Assembly (NCBI GenBank): GCA_903970355.1
Contig: CAJCIF010000113.1
Location: forward strand, 1 to 22,984
DNA length: 22,984 nt
DNA from: Actinomycetota bacterium
GTDB lineage: Bacteria > Cyanobacteriota > Vampirovibrionia > Obscuribacterales > Obscuribacteraceae
Direction of reading: 5' to 3'
The position numbers were made by a program, and so were the translations under genes. The notes beneath the pieces were generated by a model. That model made no database searches and was not told where the DNA came from. It saw nothing but the letters and a program-made list of their open reading frames with translations. Of the stretch, positions 10,463-17,304 are shown piece after piece. Positions within the stretch are counted from its first letter, which is position 1. Each line of letters starts with the position of its first letter.

Positions 10463-10503
10463 ACAGAAAGATATTAAACGCGAAGCGTTTAATATCTTTC
10501 TGT
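10463..10503. terminator. 19-bp perfect hairpin between convergent genes
   Basis: 10463-10481 is the exact reverse complement of 10485-10503 around a GAA loop. The right arm contains the stop codon and last codons of the minus-strand dehydrogenase gene (stop 10491-10489). It is likely a bidirectional terminator, although no long T-run follows either arm. Confidence 0.6.
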
Positions 10504-12051
10504 TATAGACTTTGCTTGGGTAAAGAGCAGTAAGTAGTCACGGCCGCCGGCTTTTGAATCGGTTCCGCTCATGTTGAAGCCGCCGAAAGGTTGAACGCCG
10601 ACGAGCGCGCCGGTGCATTTGCGGTTGAGGTAAAGATTGCCGACGTGAAAACGTACGCGAGCTTCATCGATGTGACTGCGATCTACCGAATAGACGCCGC
10701 CTGTCAAACCGAATTCTGTGTTGTTAGCAATTTGCAGCGCATCTTCCCAATCTTTTGCTTTTATAAGTGCAAGCACCGGGCCAAATATTTCTTCTTGAGA
10801 TATTCGTGCAGCAGGACTGACTGGGCCTATCACTGTTGGTTCGATAAAATAACCGGTATCACCCTTAGTATCACTATTGTGAACTTTACCGCCGCTCAGT
10901 AGTTTTCCTTCGCTTTTGCCGATTTCAATGTATTTGAGTACTGATTCGAATTGCGATTTCGAAGCAACCGGGCCAAGATCCACATCTTGTTTTTCTGGAA
11001 CGCCAATTTTCAGTTGTTCAACGCGTTTGACGAGTTTTTCTTTAAAAGCGTCAAAGACATTTTGATGGACGATGGCGCGGGAACAAGCTGAGCATTTCTG
11101 TCCTTGAAATCCGAAAGCGCTTGCTGCTACACCTTCTACAGCCTCATCCAGGTTAACCTTGTCGTCAACGATGATTGAATCCTTGCCACCCATTTCAGCA
11201 ATAACGCGTTTGATCCAAATTTGACCAGGTTGGGTTTTAGCTGCCAATTCATTTATGTGTAGGCCGACTTCTTTCGAACCTGTAAATGCAATAAAGCGAG
11301 TTTGAGCATGTGCTACCAGTAAATCGCCAACGCTTGCTCCCGGGCCAGGAAGAAAATTGAGAACACCGGCAGGCAAACCTACCTCTTCCATGAGCTTGGC
11401 AAATTGGAAAGAAATAGCTGGGGTTTCACTTGATGGTTTTAGGATGACGGTATTGCCCGCAACTATTGCTGCGCTTGTCATACCGACAAGAATGGCAAGT
11501 GGAAAATTCCAGGGCGGAATAACAATGCCAACACCAAGTGGAATGTAGTGCAGCGCATTTTCTTCTCCCGGATAAGGAACAACTGGTTGTGGTCCACCCA
11601 ATCGCAACATCTCACGTCCATAGAATTCCAGGAAGTCGATCGCCTCAGCAACATCAGCATCAGCTTCGACCCAATTCTTTCCAATTTCGAGAATCATCCA
11701 GGCTGCAAATTCAAATTTTCGTCGCCGCATAATTGCAGCAGCTTTAAATAAGTATCGAGCTCTCTCGTGTGCCGGCACTAAAGACCAACTGGCGAAGGCT
11801 TTCAATGCCTGCTGCATTGCTTCTTCTGCAAGTTTGGAATCTGCTTTGGCAAAACTGCCAATTACTTCTTTTGGATTACTTGGATTAGTTGAGACCAAAT
11901 AATCCTTCGTTTCCACGTGTTTGCCGCCGATTACAAGCGGGTATTTTTGCCCAAGCTCATTTCTTACCTTCTCAATAGCTAACTCGATAGCACGAGCATT
12001 GTGGGGCTGTTTAAAATCGGACAGCGATTCATTACGAAATTCTGTGAGCAT
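10489..12051 (-). CDS. 1-pyrroline-5-carboxylate dehydrogenase
   Basis: An NAD-dependent aldehyde dehydrogenase of 520 aa oxidising P5C/glutamate semialdehyde to glutamate, the second step of proline breakdown (RocA/PruA type). Evidence: IPPWNFP (about 178-184), the substrate/cofactor loop 'NTVILKPSSETPA', FTGSKEVG, the general base in AEMGGKDS (E286), the catalytic cysteine in GQKCSACSR (C320), and EEIFGPVL. The C-terminal 'QPFGGFNMSGTDSKAGGRDYL' is characteristic of P5C dehydrogenases. The length matches the monofunctional enzyme; no proline dehydrogenase is in the window. The ATG is preceded by a run of eight A and only a weak GGAAA. Confidence 0.93.
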   Translation of the reverse strand: MLTEFRNESLSDFKQPHNARAIELAIEKVRNELGQKYPLVIGGKHVETKDYLVSTNPSNPKEVIGSFAKADSKLAEEAMQQALKAFASWSLVPAHERARYLFKAAAIMRRRKFEFAAWMILEIGKNWVEADADVAEAIDFLEFYGREMLRLGGPQPVVPYPGEENALHYIPLGVGIVIPPWNFPLAILVGMTSAAIVAGNTVILKPSSETPAISFQFAKLMEEVGLPAGVLNFLPGPGASVGDLLVAHAQTRFIAFTGSKEVGLHINELAAKTQPGQIWIKRVIAEMGGKDSIIVDDKVNLDEAVEGVAASAFGFQGQKCSACSRAIVHQNVFDAFKEKLVKRVEQLKIGVPEKQDVDLGPVASKSQFESVLKYIEIGKSEGKLLSGGKVHNSDTKGDTGYFIEPTVIGPVSPAARISQEEIFGPVLALIKAKDWEDALQIANNTEFGLTGGVYSVDRSHIDEARVRFHVGNLYLNRKCTGALVGVQPFGGFNMSGTDSKAGGRDYLLLFTQAKSITERY

Positions 12052-12097: not shown

Positions 12098-13555
12098 TTA
12101 TTCTGGCTCGGCAGTCCCTTCCTGAATCAATCCTTTTGTTTCCGGAAACTCTTTGTACCAGAGCGATAGAGCATCTCTTAAGTGAAGAGCATAACGGTAG
12201 TGCGCTCCCGTGCCAGTGCGCAGTTCTGCTTCGTAAATAAACTTGTCGGCGGTGGTGAGATGCTCAAACTGAAACTGTGTTCCAAGCAACGTGAAGTAAA
12301 CGTAGTTGGGATTTCCTTCTGCAAGTAACTGCCAGGCCTTTTCGTTTGCTTCCACTCCTACCTTACTCAAATTCAATAATTTGCTTTTCGCTTCTTCATA
12401 TTTGTCGGGAATCTGGTCATACGCAAAATAAAAGCCGCGCGGCAGAAGTGGACAATACTTCGTACCGGTACGATGGCGATTCAGATCCCGTATCTCGCCA
12501 AGCGCCATGGCGTCCCAACCGAACCGTACAGCTGTACGGGCCAGGTCTTCACCTATCCATGCATAACGGTTCTCATGATTTCTCAGTGCTTGTACAAATG
12601 CTCCTTTATTTAGAGATTCAGGAAGAGTCACTTGCAATCTTGCCGTCGGTGGATGATCTGGCTGTTGTCTAAAGCGGGCCAGAAATTCCGGTCCTTCAGC
12701 ACGCGCTCTTGCAACAAGATTTTGAAATTGTTCTTCCTGTCCCCTTTTTGTTGTCTCCTTCAATTCGGCATGTCTAACCATGCGGGGAGCAGCAAGTCGA
12801 AGTTCTTCTTTGATCAATTCTCCTAACTGCAGTGCTTCGGGTAAGTTGTGAGAAAGCAACTGCTGGCAAAGCTGCACCCATCCTCTTGCCGACATAATCA
12901 TCATGACGTTCGTCAATGCAGCAGTCGGCAAAAAATAACGGGCACGATCAAAGCTGTAATTACGCTGCATACGCGCCGTTTGCTTATTGGCTTTATCCGA
13001 CTTCTCGGCAAGCAAGTTGCTTGGTATTTTCGCAAGGGCAGGATCTGCTTCGAACAAATCGTCGAATATTTGCAGGGCGCTTTGATAAGCGCTAAAACAA
13101 CCATCCATCAACTGATACCACTTCGTGGTATCAGTCACCGAGCCACCAAGGGATGAAGGCTGCACCAGACCTTCTTTTGAAAGTTTGATATAGCGCGTTG
13201 AAGATTCTTGTCCGCCTGCCGTTGGACACAATGTCCAAAGGTAATAAGCAAGCCAGAGCGAGATGTTATCCATAAAAATTGCAACCGGTACCATATCGGC
13301 AATCGACTGGTGACCGTAATCAACCATTTTGAAAATCGATTCAACCGACTTGTCGAGGTTCTTCGGGTCGATCTTCGACAAAATGGCCTCAAGTCCTTCG
13401 TTATTACGTGAATAGCGCGCACCGCTTGCCGCAAGAAGTTCTGGCGTGAGCGCAGGACGCTCAGCATCTTTAGATGCTTCGGTAGGTATAATCGCAACTT
13501 GAGTTACTTTCATTGCAGCCTGTGTTGGAACGGGTATCGCTACTTCGCTTATCAT
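12098..13555 (-). CDS. Double-length ThyX-like protein (flavin-dependent thymidylate synthase family)
   Basis: At 485 aa it is about twice a normal ThyX subunit and looks like two fused ThyX-fold halves. Half one (about 45-265): YGHQSIADM (80-88, like the ThyX GHxSxxEH motif), QESSTRYIKLS (116-126, like the NExSxRY part of the signature), ARYFLPTAALTN. Half two (about 325-470): DLNRHRTGTKY (357-367, the RHR FAD motif) and 'LRTGTGAHYRYALHLRDAL' (445-463), like the nucleotide-binding arginine region. Each half lacks what the other keeps. ThyX makes dTMP from dUMP with methylenetetrahydrofolate and FADH2. Activity here is inferred, not shown. AGAGG lies 5 nt before ATG 13555. It is divergent from folA. 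Confidence 0.75.
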   Translation of the reverse strand: MISEVAIPVPTQAAMKVTQVAIIPTEASKDAERPALTPELLAASGARYSRNNEGLEAILSKIDPKNLDKSVESIFKMVDYGHQSIADMVPVAIFMDNISLWLAYYLWTLCPTAGGQESSTRYIKLSKEGLVQPSSLGGSVTDTTKWYQLMDGCFSAYQSALQIFDDLFEADPALAKIPSNLLAEKSDKANKQTARMQRNYSFDRARYFLPTAALTNVMMIMSARGWVQLCQQLLSHNLPEALQLGELIKEELRLAAPRMVRHAELKETTKRGQEEQFQNLVARARAEGPEFLARFRQQPDHPPTARLQVTLPESLNKGAFVQALRNHENRYAWIGEDLARTAVRFGWDAMALGEIRDLNRHRTGTKYCPLLPRGFYFAYDQIPDKYEEAKSKLLNLSKVGVEANEKAWQLLAEGNPNYVYFTLLGTQFQFEHLTTADKFIYEAELRTGTGAHYRYALHLRDALSLWYKEFPETKGLIQEGTAEPE

Positions 13556-13699: not shown

Positions 13700-14251
13700 G
13701 TGAAGATCGAAACAGAACTGGCTATCGTTGTGGCCCATGACCAAAATCTCGGCATTGGCAAAGACGGCCGATTGCCGTGGCATTTGTCCCAGGATTTAAA
13801 ACATTTTCGCGAAATAACCACAAGATCCTACGACTCTAATTTTCAAAACGGTGTCATCATGGGACGCAAGACGTGGCTATCGCTTCCGGATGTTGTAAGA
13901 CCACTGCCGGATCGTCTCAATTGCGTACTCTGCCGCTCACAGCAATCGGAAATTGTGGAGAACGATCACGTGCTGGTTGCCAATAGTTTTTCAGAAGCGA
14001 TCGCAAAACTGATCTCGAAGTCCTGCCCGAGAATATTTGTGATTGGCGGCGGAGAGATATTCAAATTGGCGATCGACGACTCAAGCATCAACCTTCTATA
14101 TGTAACTGCGGTTGAAGGTGACTTCAATTGCGATACCTTCTTTCCTGAATATCGACTGCGGTTTGAAGAAACAGACAGCGTTGAAACGCAAAGAGAAGGA
14201 GACATTCAGTTTCGGTTCTCGAATTTTCGCCGCAAGGGAAGTAAGGCATGA
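13700..14251 (+). CDS. folA: Dihydrofolate reductase
   Basis: Reduces dihydrofolate to tetrahydrofolate with NADPH (183 aa). The N-terminal ELAIVVAHDQNLGIGKDGRL, then PWHLSQDLKHF with the active-site aspartate (D32), is canonical. So are VIMGRKTWLSLP, PLPDRLNCVL and the NADPH-binding FVIGGGEIF. The start is GTG 13700; there is no in-frame ATG between an upstream stop and the first motif, and no clear ribosome site. It is divergent from the thyX-like gene, which groups folate and thymidylate functions. It overlaps aat by 4 bp (ATGA), implying coupled translation. Confidence 0.93.
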   Translation: MKIETELAIVVAHDQNLGIGKDGRLPWHLSQDLKHFREITTRSYDSNFQNGVIMGRKTWLSLPDVVRPLPDRLNCVLCRSQQSEIVENDHVLVANSFSEAIAKLISKSCPRIFVIGGGEIFKLAIDDSSINLLYVTAVEGDFNCDTFFPEYRLRFEETDSVETQREGDIQFRFSNFRRKGSKA

Positions 14252-14823
14252 AAGAACCGGAGTTTAATGCCGAGCTACTTTTGCGTGCATACTCATCCGG
14301 AATATTTCCCATGGGTGAAGACGACCAGATCAGTTGGTATTCGCCGGACCCGCGTTTTGTGATCGATTTAAAGAATTTCCACATCCCGAAGAGATTGGCC
14401 CGGACATATCGACAGCAACCTTTCGAACTGCGAGTTGATACAGCCTGGAGCGATGTCTTGCGCTTGTGTGCTCAAAGAGAAAGCACCTGGATCACCGATG
14501 AGATCATTCGCGCCTACACCGAACTGCATGAGCTCGGATTCGCTCACACCGTCGAGGCTTTTCAAGGAGACAAATTAGTGGGCGGTCTTTATGGCGTCAG
14601 TATCGGTGGCGCATTCATGGGAGAGTCCATGTTTCATCTTGCAACCGATGCTTCAAAAATTTGTCTTGTCTATTTGGTGGAGAGATTGAATGCACGAGGA
14701 TTCATACTTCTTGATTCCCAATTTGCAACTGAGCACCTCATCAAGTTTGGAGGAGTGCTCATCACTCGAAAGAAGTACCTTGCAGTGCTTTCGCAGGCGC
14801 TCAAGCTTGATTGTCGCTTCTAA
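14248..14823 (+). CDS. aat: Leucyl/phenylalanyl-tRNA--protein transferase
   Basis: Transfers Leu or Phe from aminoacyl-tRNA to proteins with N-terminal Lys or Arg, marking them for ClpS/ClpAP in the bacterial N-degron pathway; cytosolic. Family signatures are clear: AYSSGIFPMG near the N-terminus, WYSPDPRFVI, 'WITDEIIRAYTELHELGFAH', and the core 'LVGGLYGVSIGGAFMGESMF' followed by ASKICLVYLVERL and LLDSQF. The length (191 aa) is slightly shorter than the E. coli enzyme. Its start overlaps the folA stop, with GGGAAG inside folA as ribosome site. It is followed by a clear stem-loop. Confidence 0.94.
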   Translation: MKEPEFNAELLLRAYSSGIFPMGEDDQISWYSPDPRFVIDLKNFHIPKRLARTYRQQPFELRVDTAWSDVLRLCAQRESTWITDEIIRAYTELHELGFAHTVEAFQGDKLVGGLYGVSIGGAFMGESMFHLATDASKICLVYLVERLNARGFILLDSQFATEHLIKFGGVLITRKKYLAVLSQALKLDCRF

Positions 14824-16294: not shown

Positions 16295-16698
16295 CCACCA
16301 AATACGCAATCTGCATTTTGAAAAACGTTGTACCCCGGCCTCTAATGCATATATTCATCCCCAGCATAAAATTTTCCATTCAAAATTTAAGCGAACCACT
16401 CAGGTCATCCGAGCGGAATCGCTGCAGTTCGAAACTGGCTTACCAAGCCATTTTCAGAAGAGGCACTTCAAGTCGGAGTCAGCCGAAAAGAGAGGCAGCC
16501 TCAATTTGAGGCCGGATAACTTGTTGCAATTTATGGGAATAGAAAGTACTCTATTCTTCATGTGGTGTCGTTGGGAAAAAGTGCATACTCAAGGAAGCAC
16601 TTACTAAAATGGTGGCAGACAGAAAAAACTGATCGGAACCAAAACTAAAGTTGATGCCGAACATCTGCTGCAATCAACAACCAAGTGGGAGGAAAATA
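16295..16698. other. 404-bp stretch without a recognised gene
   Basis: No convincing ORF or known RNA family was found by eye. Two small dyads are visible: GCCTCA/TGAGGC (16498-16512) and GAATAGA/TCTATTC (16537-16556, 6-nt loop). The stretch may hold the promoter and a long leader of the histone-like gene, or an unrecognised RNA. The last 20 bp carry the ribosome site GGGAGG of that gene. Confidence 0.4.
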
Positions 16699-17304
16699 AT
16701 GGCCGTAAAGATGAAAAAGAAAACGGTGCGGAGAGCTAAAATCTCTCCAGCCGCTGCATTGGCAGATGAGTCCGGCGTGACTCCAGCCAAACCAAAGAAA
16801 GCAGTAAAACGCAAAGCTAAAAAGACCACAGCTAAAAAAGCTGCTCCGAAAAAAGCTGCCGCGAAAAAAGCTGCTCCTAAGAAGGCTGCTAAAAAGACCA
16901 CAGCTAAAAAAGCTGCTCCGAAAAAAGCTGCCAAAAAGACAACAGCTAAGAAAGCTGCTCCGAAAAAGGCAGTCAAAAAGACTACCGCCAAGAAAACAAC
17001 TCGTAAAGCTGCACCGAAAAAGGCTGCAGCCAAGAAGACGACTGCTAAAAAGACCACAGCCAAAAAGGCTGCACCAAAGAAAGCAGCCGCTAAGAAAACT
17101 ACCGCAAAGCGCAAGACTACTGCAAAGAAGTCACCCGCTAAAAAGAAAGCAGCCCCTAAGAAGGCAGCGACTAAGCGCCCGGCCAAAGCAGCAGGAAAGA
17201 AACGTGCTGTAAAAAAGTCGGGAGCTAAGCGTAAAACAGCAGCGGCACCGGCCGCTGTTAATCATGAACACCACGGCGAGCTCGGCTCGGAACACCATGA
17301 TTAG
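16699..17304 (+). CDS. Lysine/alanine-rich histone H1-like DNA-binding protein
   Basis: The protein (201 aa) consists mostly of K/A/T/P repeats of the type TTAKKAAPKKAAKK, like the C-terminal tails of eukaryotic H1, chlamydial Hc2 and AlgP. The N-terminal 35 residues (MAVKMKKKTVRRAKISPAAA) are less repetitive. The C-terminus differs: about 20 residues with histidines and acids (NHEHHGELGSEHHD). It probably binds DNA or RNA non-specifically and compacts the nucleoid; this is inferred from composition. GGGAGG lies 6 nt before ATG 16699, which rules out the longer frame from 16651. The DNA repeats make it prone to length variation. It is followed by a terminator. Confidence 0.88.
   Translation: MAVKMKKKTVRRAKISPAAALADESGVTPAKPKKAVKRKAKKTTAKKAAPKKAAAKKAAPKKAAKKTTAKKAAPKKAAKKTTAKKAAPKKAVKKTTAKKTTRKAAPKKAAAKKTTAKKTTAKKAAPKKAAAKKTTAKRKTTAKKSPAKKKAAPKKAATKRPAKAAGKKRAVKKSGAKRKTAAAPAAVNHEHHGELGSEHHD
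16816..16932 (+). repeat. Internal direct repeats in the histone-like gene
   Basis: A 45-bp stretch at 16816-16860 recurs exactly at 16888-16932, 72 bp (24 codons) downstream, with further diverged copies after it. The spacing is a multiple of three, so copy-number changes would keep the frame. Confidence 0.85.

What the first reader, a model, noticed from the sequence alone, without database searches (positions are those of the whole stretch)
12098..13555. Tandem ThyX-fold protein whose halves hold complementary parts of the ThyX signature
A 485-aa protein reads as two ThyX-like halves. Half one keeps GHQSIADM and ESSTRY (117-122), but where the FAD-binding RHR should stand (about 108-110) it has TLC. 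Half two keeps NRHRTGTKY (RHR at 360-362) and a nucleotide-binding-like LRTGTGAHYRYAL, but lacks the ExSxRY element. In normal ThyX tetramers the active site is built from several subunits, so reciprocal loss after gene fusion could leave one composite site per pair. Alternatively the protein has lost synthase activity.
Basis: partly seen in the sequence, partly recalled or inferred. Interest (0 to 1): 0.7.

Follow-up and report, generated by a model that had tools for sequence, protein, structure and literature searches.

The report
Two-part ThyX with split active site
This gene encodes a double-length version of the flavin-dependent enzyme that makes the DNA building block dTMP, in which each half has kept only one share of the usual active site, so that a working site should form only when two copies of the protein come together.

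Summary
The 485-aa protein is two ThyX folds in tandem: a confident model (pLDDT 92, pTM 0.90) matches solved ThyX over residues 12-271 and 300-485. The split is orderly. Published ThyX sites use three subunits: A (RHR, R174), B (S71/T55, R165), C (SxRY, R147). In 232 aligned members the A residues are conserved only in half 2, the B and C residues only in half 1. I infer two live and two dead sites per homodimer, each live site needing both chains. Relatives carry thyA beside folA; here and in one other genome of the order a tandem ThyX fills that slot. Of 43 genomes with members, none has a full-length thyA match, 42 lack a folA match, and 33 show neither another ThyX nor full-length thymidine kinase. 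Most likely an active thymidylate synthase. A duplicated ThyX in Chloroflexi was noted in 2009 as uncharacterised; ten searches of open-licence papers found no report of the reciprocal split. Activity and dimer structure are untested.

The parts
12098..13555 (-). Tandem ThyX coding sequence, 485 aa plus stop
12743..13522 (-). Half 1 (residues 12-271), ThyX fold, supplies the published B- and C-subunit residues
12101..12658 (-). Half 2 (residues 300-485), ThyX fold, supplies the published A-subunit residues
13292..13315 (-). GHQSIADM (81-88): H82 = Tm H53, S84 = Mtb S71 (B role)
13226..13234 (-). TLC (108-110), the degenerate RHR slot of half 1
13190..13207 (-). ESSTRY (117-122), dUMP-binding and lid peptide (C role)
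12938..12940 (-). R206 = Tm R147 / PolB R166 (C role)
   Evidence: equivalence by spacing, computed by me
12884..12886 (-). R224 = Mtb R190 / Tm R165 (B role)
12857..12859 (-). L233, the lost R174/R199 position of half 1
12470..12478 (-). RHR (360-362), FAD clamp (A role)
   Evidence: 232/232
12200..12223 (-). LRTGTGAH (445-452): R446 = Tm R174 / Mtb R199 (A role)
   Evidence: 232/232; just behind helix 436-445 of the model; equivalence by secondary structure, mine
13700..14251 (+). folA (dihydrofolate reductase), next to thyA in relatives, here divergent from the tandem thyX
   Evidence: PF00186 E 7e-39; synteny
14248..14823 (+). aat-like gene (name recalled from the sequence), syntenic in relatives
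10489..12051 (-). aldehyde-dehydrogenase-like gene (name recalled), on the far side of thyA in 7 of 9 fetched relatives

Best explanation
The gene encodes a fused, subfunctionalised flavin-dependent thymidylate synthase. After tandem duplication of a ThyX domain, half 2 kept the role of subunit A (RHR holding FAD and dUMP, and the arginine that activates uracil), while half 1 kept the roles of subunits B and C (FAD-phosphate residues; the SxRY lid and the dUMP-phosphate arginine). Two chains form a ThyX-like pseudo-tetramer in which the half-2s take the two positions that share no active site. This gives two live sites, each from one half 2 and both half 1s, and two dead sites. It makes dTMP and THF from dUMP and methylene-THF, and in this genome it has replaced ThyA at the thyA-folA locus. 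Shown: tandem fold (predicted), residue partition, occupation of the thyA slot, absence of other synthases in most genomes with members. Inferred: dimer, live and dead sites, catalysis.
For: Both halves match solved ThyX structures in a confident model. In 232 aligned members (closest hits of two capped searches plus loci; some P and L rows are identical) A-role R360, H361, R362 and R446 are 232/232 in half 2, while half 1 never has R at the third RHR slot and always L at 233. B-role H82, S84, R224 and C-role R206, E117, S119, R121 are 232/232 and Y122 229/232 (F in 3) in half 1; their half-2 counterparts are not conserved as such. Roles come from PMC6514825 and PMC5003785. Of 39 family/order genomes 34 have thyA and no Thy1; the only two with Thy1 (G000, G134) show no thyA and carry the tandem gene beside folA, where 9 of 9 fetched relatives carry thyA. 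In 43 genomes with members: no full-length thyA match, canonical ThyX in 3, folA in 1, thymidine kinase over its full length in 9.
Against: No activity data. Half 2 is not recognised by sequence profile (hhalign probability 0.8% to canonical ThyX, 0.2% to half 1); its residue mapping rests on the RHR motif and on matching secondary-structure elements, not on a printed structural alignment. By that mapping two half-2 positions keep the B/C-type residue in part of the family: S in 60 of 232 at 336 and R in 43 of 232 at 373. Dimer geometry was not modelled. In 3 of 43 genomes a canonical ThyX is also present, so there the tandem form could do something else. The TIGR02170 cut-off is missed (20.9 against 87.9 bits). 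G000 and G134 are only about 65% complete, so missing genes there mean little by themselves. The gene's third-position GC (0.44) lies between those of its neighbours (0.39-0.51) and gives no sign of a recent transfer.
Confidence: 0.82

Rival explanations
1. An active ThyX-fold methylase with another substrate, as PolB acts on UMP in an antibiotic pathway, dTMP synthesis lying elsewhere.
For: PolB structures are among the fold matches, and its authors call UMP its naturally preferred substrate although dUMP binds more tightly; 3 of 43 genomes also hold a canonical ThyX.
Against: 33 of 43 genomes show no other ThyX, no full-length thyA match and no full-length thymidine kinase match (two of the 33 have a partial thyA match over the cut-off); 42 of 43 lack a folA match, a pattern linked with ThyX; the gene sits in the thyA slot in two genomes.
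Confidence: 0.08
2. Each half keeps part of the site because the protein has lost synthase activity and is a structural or regulatory relic, for example an FAD or dUMP sensor.
For: Neither half carries a full ThyX signature; a ThyX that is not needed for thymidylate synthesis is known from the titles of PDB entries 3ge9 and 3fnn.
Against: Conservation of the residues needed for a composite site, each in one half, and absence of another dTMP route in most of the 43 genomes.
Confidence: 0.05
3. The composite site is right but forms within one chain, or in a larger or different oligomer than the two-chain pseudo-tetramer.
For: The oligomer was not modelled, and pTM 0.90 suggests only that the two halves have a defined mutual placement.
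Against: The published site takes B- and C-role residues from two different subunits; both roles sit in half 1, of which one chain has a single copy.
Confidence: 0.1

Closest known systems
Homotetrameric ThyX (T. maritima TM0449, M. tuberculosis ThyX 3gwc)
   Same: Fold of each half; each of 12 compared active-site positions is conserved in one half.
   Different: Two ThyX domains in one chain; RHR and SxRY lie in different halves; predicted two sites instead of four per tetramer-sized assembly.
Duplicated ThyX of Chloroflexi noted by Valas and Bourne 2009 (PMC3224940, passages read)
   Different: Those sequences were not compared here; of the two passages seen one is in the reference list, and the other says nothing of a reciprocal split of the active site.
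The ~525-aa tandem ThyX group found here (P0193 and relatives; source names include Sericytochromatia, Planctomycetota, Leptospirillia)
   Same: RHR and an R174-like arginine in half 2 (120/120); S and R of SxRY and an R147-like arginine in half 1 (120/120), Y 118/120; half 1 folds as ThyX.
   Different: Both halves match Thy1 in three members examined (G004, G010, G018); B-role R165 seems absent from both halves by my reading, not counted; aligns to the window's family only in half 1.
PolB, UMP/dUMP C5-methylase
   Same: ThyX fold, and the same two-monomer division of the nucleotide site.
   Different: Single domain (226-235 residues in the chains); antibiotic pathway.
Chlamydia trachomatis ThyX
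   Same: Recalled, not tested: about 500 aa long, so possibly a tandem form. It is used as a ThyX in activity assays (PMC3498832, passage).
   Different: No sequence of it was reached here.

Membership tests
Thy1 superfamily (PF02511) | Score above the Pfam gathering cut-off | tested here: met
   53.2 bits against 24.8, half 1 only
Thy1 superfamily (PF02511) | ThyX fold | tested here: met
Canonical ThyX (TIGR02170 equivalog) | Score above the curated cut-off | tested here: not met
   20.9 bits against 87.9
Canonical ThyX (TIGR02170 equivalog) | RHR followed within one domain by SxRY (contiguous ThyX motif) | tested here: not met
   SxRY in half 1 with TLC in the RHR slot, RHR in half 2 without SxRY; no R at the third slot of half 1 in 232 of 232
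Canonical ThyX (TIGR02170 equivalog) | FAD and dUMP contact residues present | tested here: met
   12 positions (A, B and C roles) each conserved in one half: 11 at 232/232, Y122 229/232. M. tuberculosis R87 (C role) is not kept in half 1; T. maritima lacks it too by my reading
Functional thymidylate synthase | Only dTMP route found in at least some holders | tested here: met
   33 of 43 genomes: no other Thy1, no full-length thyA match, no full-length thymidine kinase match; completeness not given for these genomes
Functional thymidylate synthase | Catalysis dUMP to dTMP | not testable with these tools
   needs the bench
Homotetramer with 222 symmetry (here a dimer of fused chains) | Oligomeric state | not testable with these tools
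   only single-chain models could be made

The most novel reading that the evidence does not exclude
Tandem ThyX proteins are a widespread class of thymidylate synthase in which gene fusion froze a three-subunit active site into fixed roles, leaving two live and two dead sites and an obligate two-chain site; the same split arose at least twice (the ~470-aa and ~525-aa groups), and such enzymes displaced ThyA in place at least twice in one bacterial family.
Probability: 0.35. Interest if true: 0.7.

Novelty: new variant of a known kind. Interest (0 to 1): 0.55.

Why it matters
ThyX is a drug target and a classic case of an active site shared by several subunits. A natural fusion with reciprocal loss gives each subunit role a fixed place in one chain, so the roles can be mutated one at a time, which a homotetramer does not allow. 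It would also explain why the curated ThyX equivalog misses this protein, and perhaps many like it, although it looks like the only thymidylate synthase of most of the holders examined.

Tried and rejected
Rejected: a single degenerate ThyX with an unrelated tail (half 2 has the ThyX fold); binning error (the neighbours keep the gene order of the family); a second thyX or a thyA elsewhere in G000 (none found; 65.7% complete).

Led nowhere: the first genome-contig scan with the single protein; the PDB search with the single sequence; hhalign of half 2 to canonical ThyX (probability 0.8%) and of half 1 to half 2 (0.2%), with a canonical set of 9 sequences (half 1 to canonical 77%); the 50-row careful tree, which did not finish (quick tree shown). 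A 21-row tree (LG+G4) gave p-AU 0.03 against P0001 and G134's protein forming one clade; G134's branch is very long, so two separate acquisitions are likely, not proven. I could not reach a Chlamydia ThyX sequence. In the VIA second look at the ~525-aa model most rows cover residues 5-253; its half 2 was compared with canonical ThyX by sequence only.

Paper searches: in open-licence PMC only. The one paper found on a duplicated ThyX is PMC3224940.

Full report
WHAT IS THERE. The ORF 12098-13555 lies on the minus strand and encodes 485 aa. Pfam Thy1 matches residues 38-257 at 53.2 bits (cut-off 24.8); the NCBIfam thyX equivalog is far below its cut-off (20.9 against 87.9 bits); a phmmer search of the PDB with the single sequence finds nothing at E<=1. 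A profile of seven family members finds M. tuberculosis ThyX through half 1, and that alignment puts TLC (108-110) opposite RHR, E117-Y122 opposite Q103-Y108, S84 opposite S71, R224 opposite R190 and L233 opposite R199 (residue equivalences read off by me).

A CONSERVED FAMILY. The protein search gave 2987 proteins at E<=0.001 among 7998 scored candidates; the 119 others of the 120 listed are 455-514 aa long and 59-66% identical. A second search, with a seven-sequence alignment, gave 2183 of 7999, with overlap. Neither total was checked protein by protein. Titles of the 44 loci found in genome contigs name Verrucomicrobia, Kiritimatiellae, Lentisphaerae, Armatimonadota, Chlorobiota, Pirellulaceae, Berkelbacteria and Rickettsiaceae MAGs, among others.

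THE PARTITION FOLLOWS THE SUBUNIT ROLES. PMC6514825 (section 9 read) describes one M. tuberculosis site: subunit A gives RHR 95-97 and R199; B gives S71 and R190; C gives the Q103 backbone, S105, R107, R87 and the lid Y108. PMC5003785 (passages) puts PolB F79, R82 and H83 on one monomer and S96, R98 and R166 on a neighbouring one, with E94 on the second and R193 on the first, so the T. maritima R147 equivalent goes with the C role. PMC11940539 (passages) puts H53 on a third monomer. The 232 aligned members are the 192 proteins held at that point and 40 locus proteins of at least 420 aa (four shorter ones dropped; some rows identical); they are the closest hits, not a sample of the whole family. 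In them R360, H361, R362 and R446 are 232/232; in half 1 the slots are mostly T/S/A, L/Q/I/V and C/A/S/V, with R in 2 of 232 at position 108, no R at 110, and always L at 233. H82, S84, R206, R224, E117, S119 and R121 are 232/232 and Y122 229/232. By offset, the half-2 counterparts are variable or different: D/N/E at 437, G at 374 in 231, but S in 60 at 336 and R in 43 at 373. R87 has no counterpart in half 1 by my reading; T. maritima ThyX lacks it too (my reading). If the half-2s take two of the four positions of a 222 tetramer, only the pair that shares no site lets every live site find all its residues (my inference): two live and two dead sites, each live one using both chains.

FUNCTION FROM GENOMES. 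G000 holds one Thy1 and no thyA match, but is 65.7% complete. Among 60 relatives, 39 (G000 included) are of the same family or order: 34 have thyA and no Thy1; G000 and G134 have Thy1 and no thyA; 3 (66-88% complete) have neither. All 21 other same-class genomes have Thy1 and no thyA. In the order, 2 of 53 genomes match the window's protein. I fetched 9 of the 34 thyA loci: in 9 of 9 thyA lies beside folA, and in 7 of 9 the aldehyde-dehydrogenase-like gene lies on its far side. In the window the tandem gene fills that slot in inverted orientation; in G134 it lies in front of folA in the thyA orientation, without the aldehyde-dehydrogenase-like gene in the 6.8-kb contig (L073). The two tandem proteins are 40% identical (their neighbours 40-86%, the 40% being folA), whereas the window's protein is 59-66% identical to the best foreign ones; a test of one clade gives p 0.03, with a long branch. 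Two displacements are likely. Third-position GC of the gene (0.44) does not stand out.

In the 43 genomes behind the 44 named loci: 43 have Thy1 (42 over the cut-off); 3 also a canonical ThyX (G190, G199, G202); 4 have partial PF00303 matches (two over the cut-off), none full-length. Of these 43 plus G000 and G134, 12 of 45 have a thymidine kinase match, 9 over its full length, and 3 of 45 have folA (G000, G134, G173). So 33 of 43 have the tandem ThyX as the only dTMP route found (two of the 33, G188 and G207, have a partial thyA match over the cut-off), and 42 of 43 lack a folA match, a pattern linked with ThyX (PMC1971073 passage). Completeness of these 43 is not given.

RELATED FORMS. Proteins of two other genomes of the phylum (G001, G007) align end to end with the family (hhalign 99.3%, E 2.6e-20, 34-479), with RHR, SxRY and the R446 arginine in register. 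A second group of ~525 aa (7126 of 8000 candidates at E<=0.001, which may include other ThyX; 120 analysed) has RHR and an R174-like arginine in half 2 (120/120), S and R of SxRY in half 1 (120/120, Y 118/120) and an R147-like arginine in half 1 (120/120); its half 2 aligns to canonical ThyX with RHR and R174 in register (97.4%) and its model is confident (pLDDT 89.1). It aligns to the window's family only in half 1 (75.5%), so common or separate origin of the split is open. Five phylum genomes with such long forms (G001, G004, G007, G010, G018) show no thyA match.

WHAT IS KNOWN. Valas and Bourne 2009 (PMC3224940, passages) say that Chloroflexi ThyX contains a domain duplication that has not been characterized but occurs in a few other species. 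The listings and the passages read turned up no report of reciprocal loss; the library holds open-licence papers only. That C. trachomatis ThyX may be long is recalled only.

VERDICT. It is a new variant of a known kind: a fused ThyX that fails two tests of canonical ThyX but keeps the 12 active-site positions compared, divided between its halves by subunit role.

Noticed in passing
genomes G002, G005, G014, G030 and 15 others of the phylum: 19 of 116 genomes of the phylum lack Thy1 and have instead a 498-576 aa open frame matching only positions 87-237 of the 266-position thyA profile: possibly a long divergent ThyA.
   Followed up: no
G019, G048, G052, G070, G077, G081, G085, G115: Thy1 match split near profile position 85 in open frames of 423-709 aa, as expected for an intein in thyX (known for ThyX from a paper title in a reference list).
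   Followed up: no
L079 (MAG isolate WY5.bin105): The only one of 43 holder genomes with a folA match has it directly behind the tandem thyX.
   Followed up: partly
window 16651-17304 (+): Lysine-rich repeat protein (AKKTTAKKAAPKK units), histone-H1-like in composition.
   Followed up: no
G202 (Rickettsiaceae MAG): Two open frames of tandem ThyX length (463 and 472 aa) plus a canonical ThyX in a 1.2 Mb genome: mixed bin or real redundancy.
   Followed up: no
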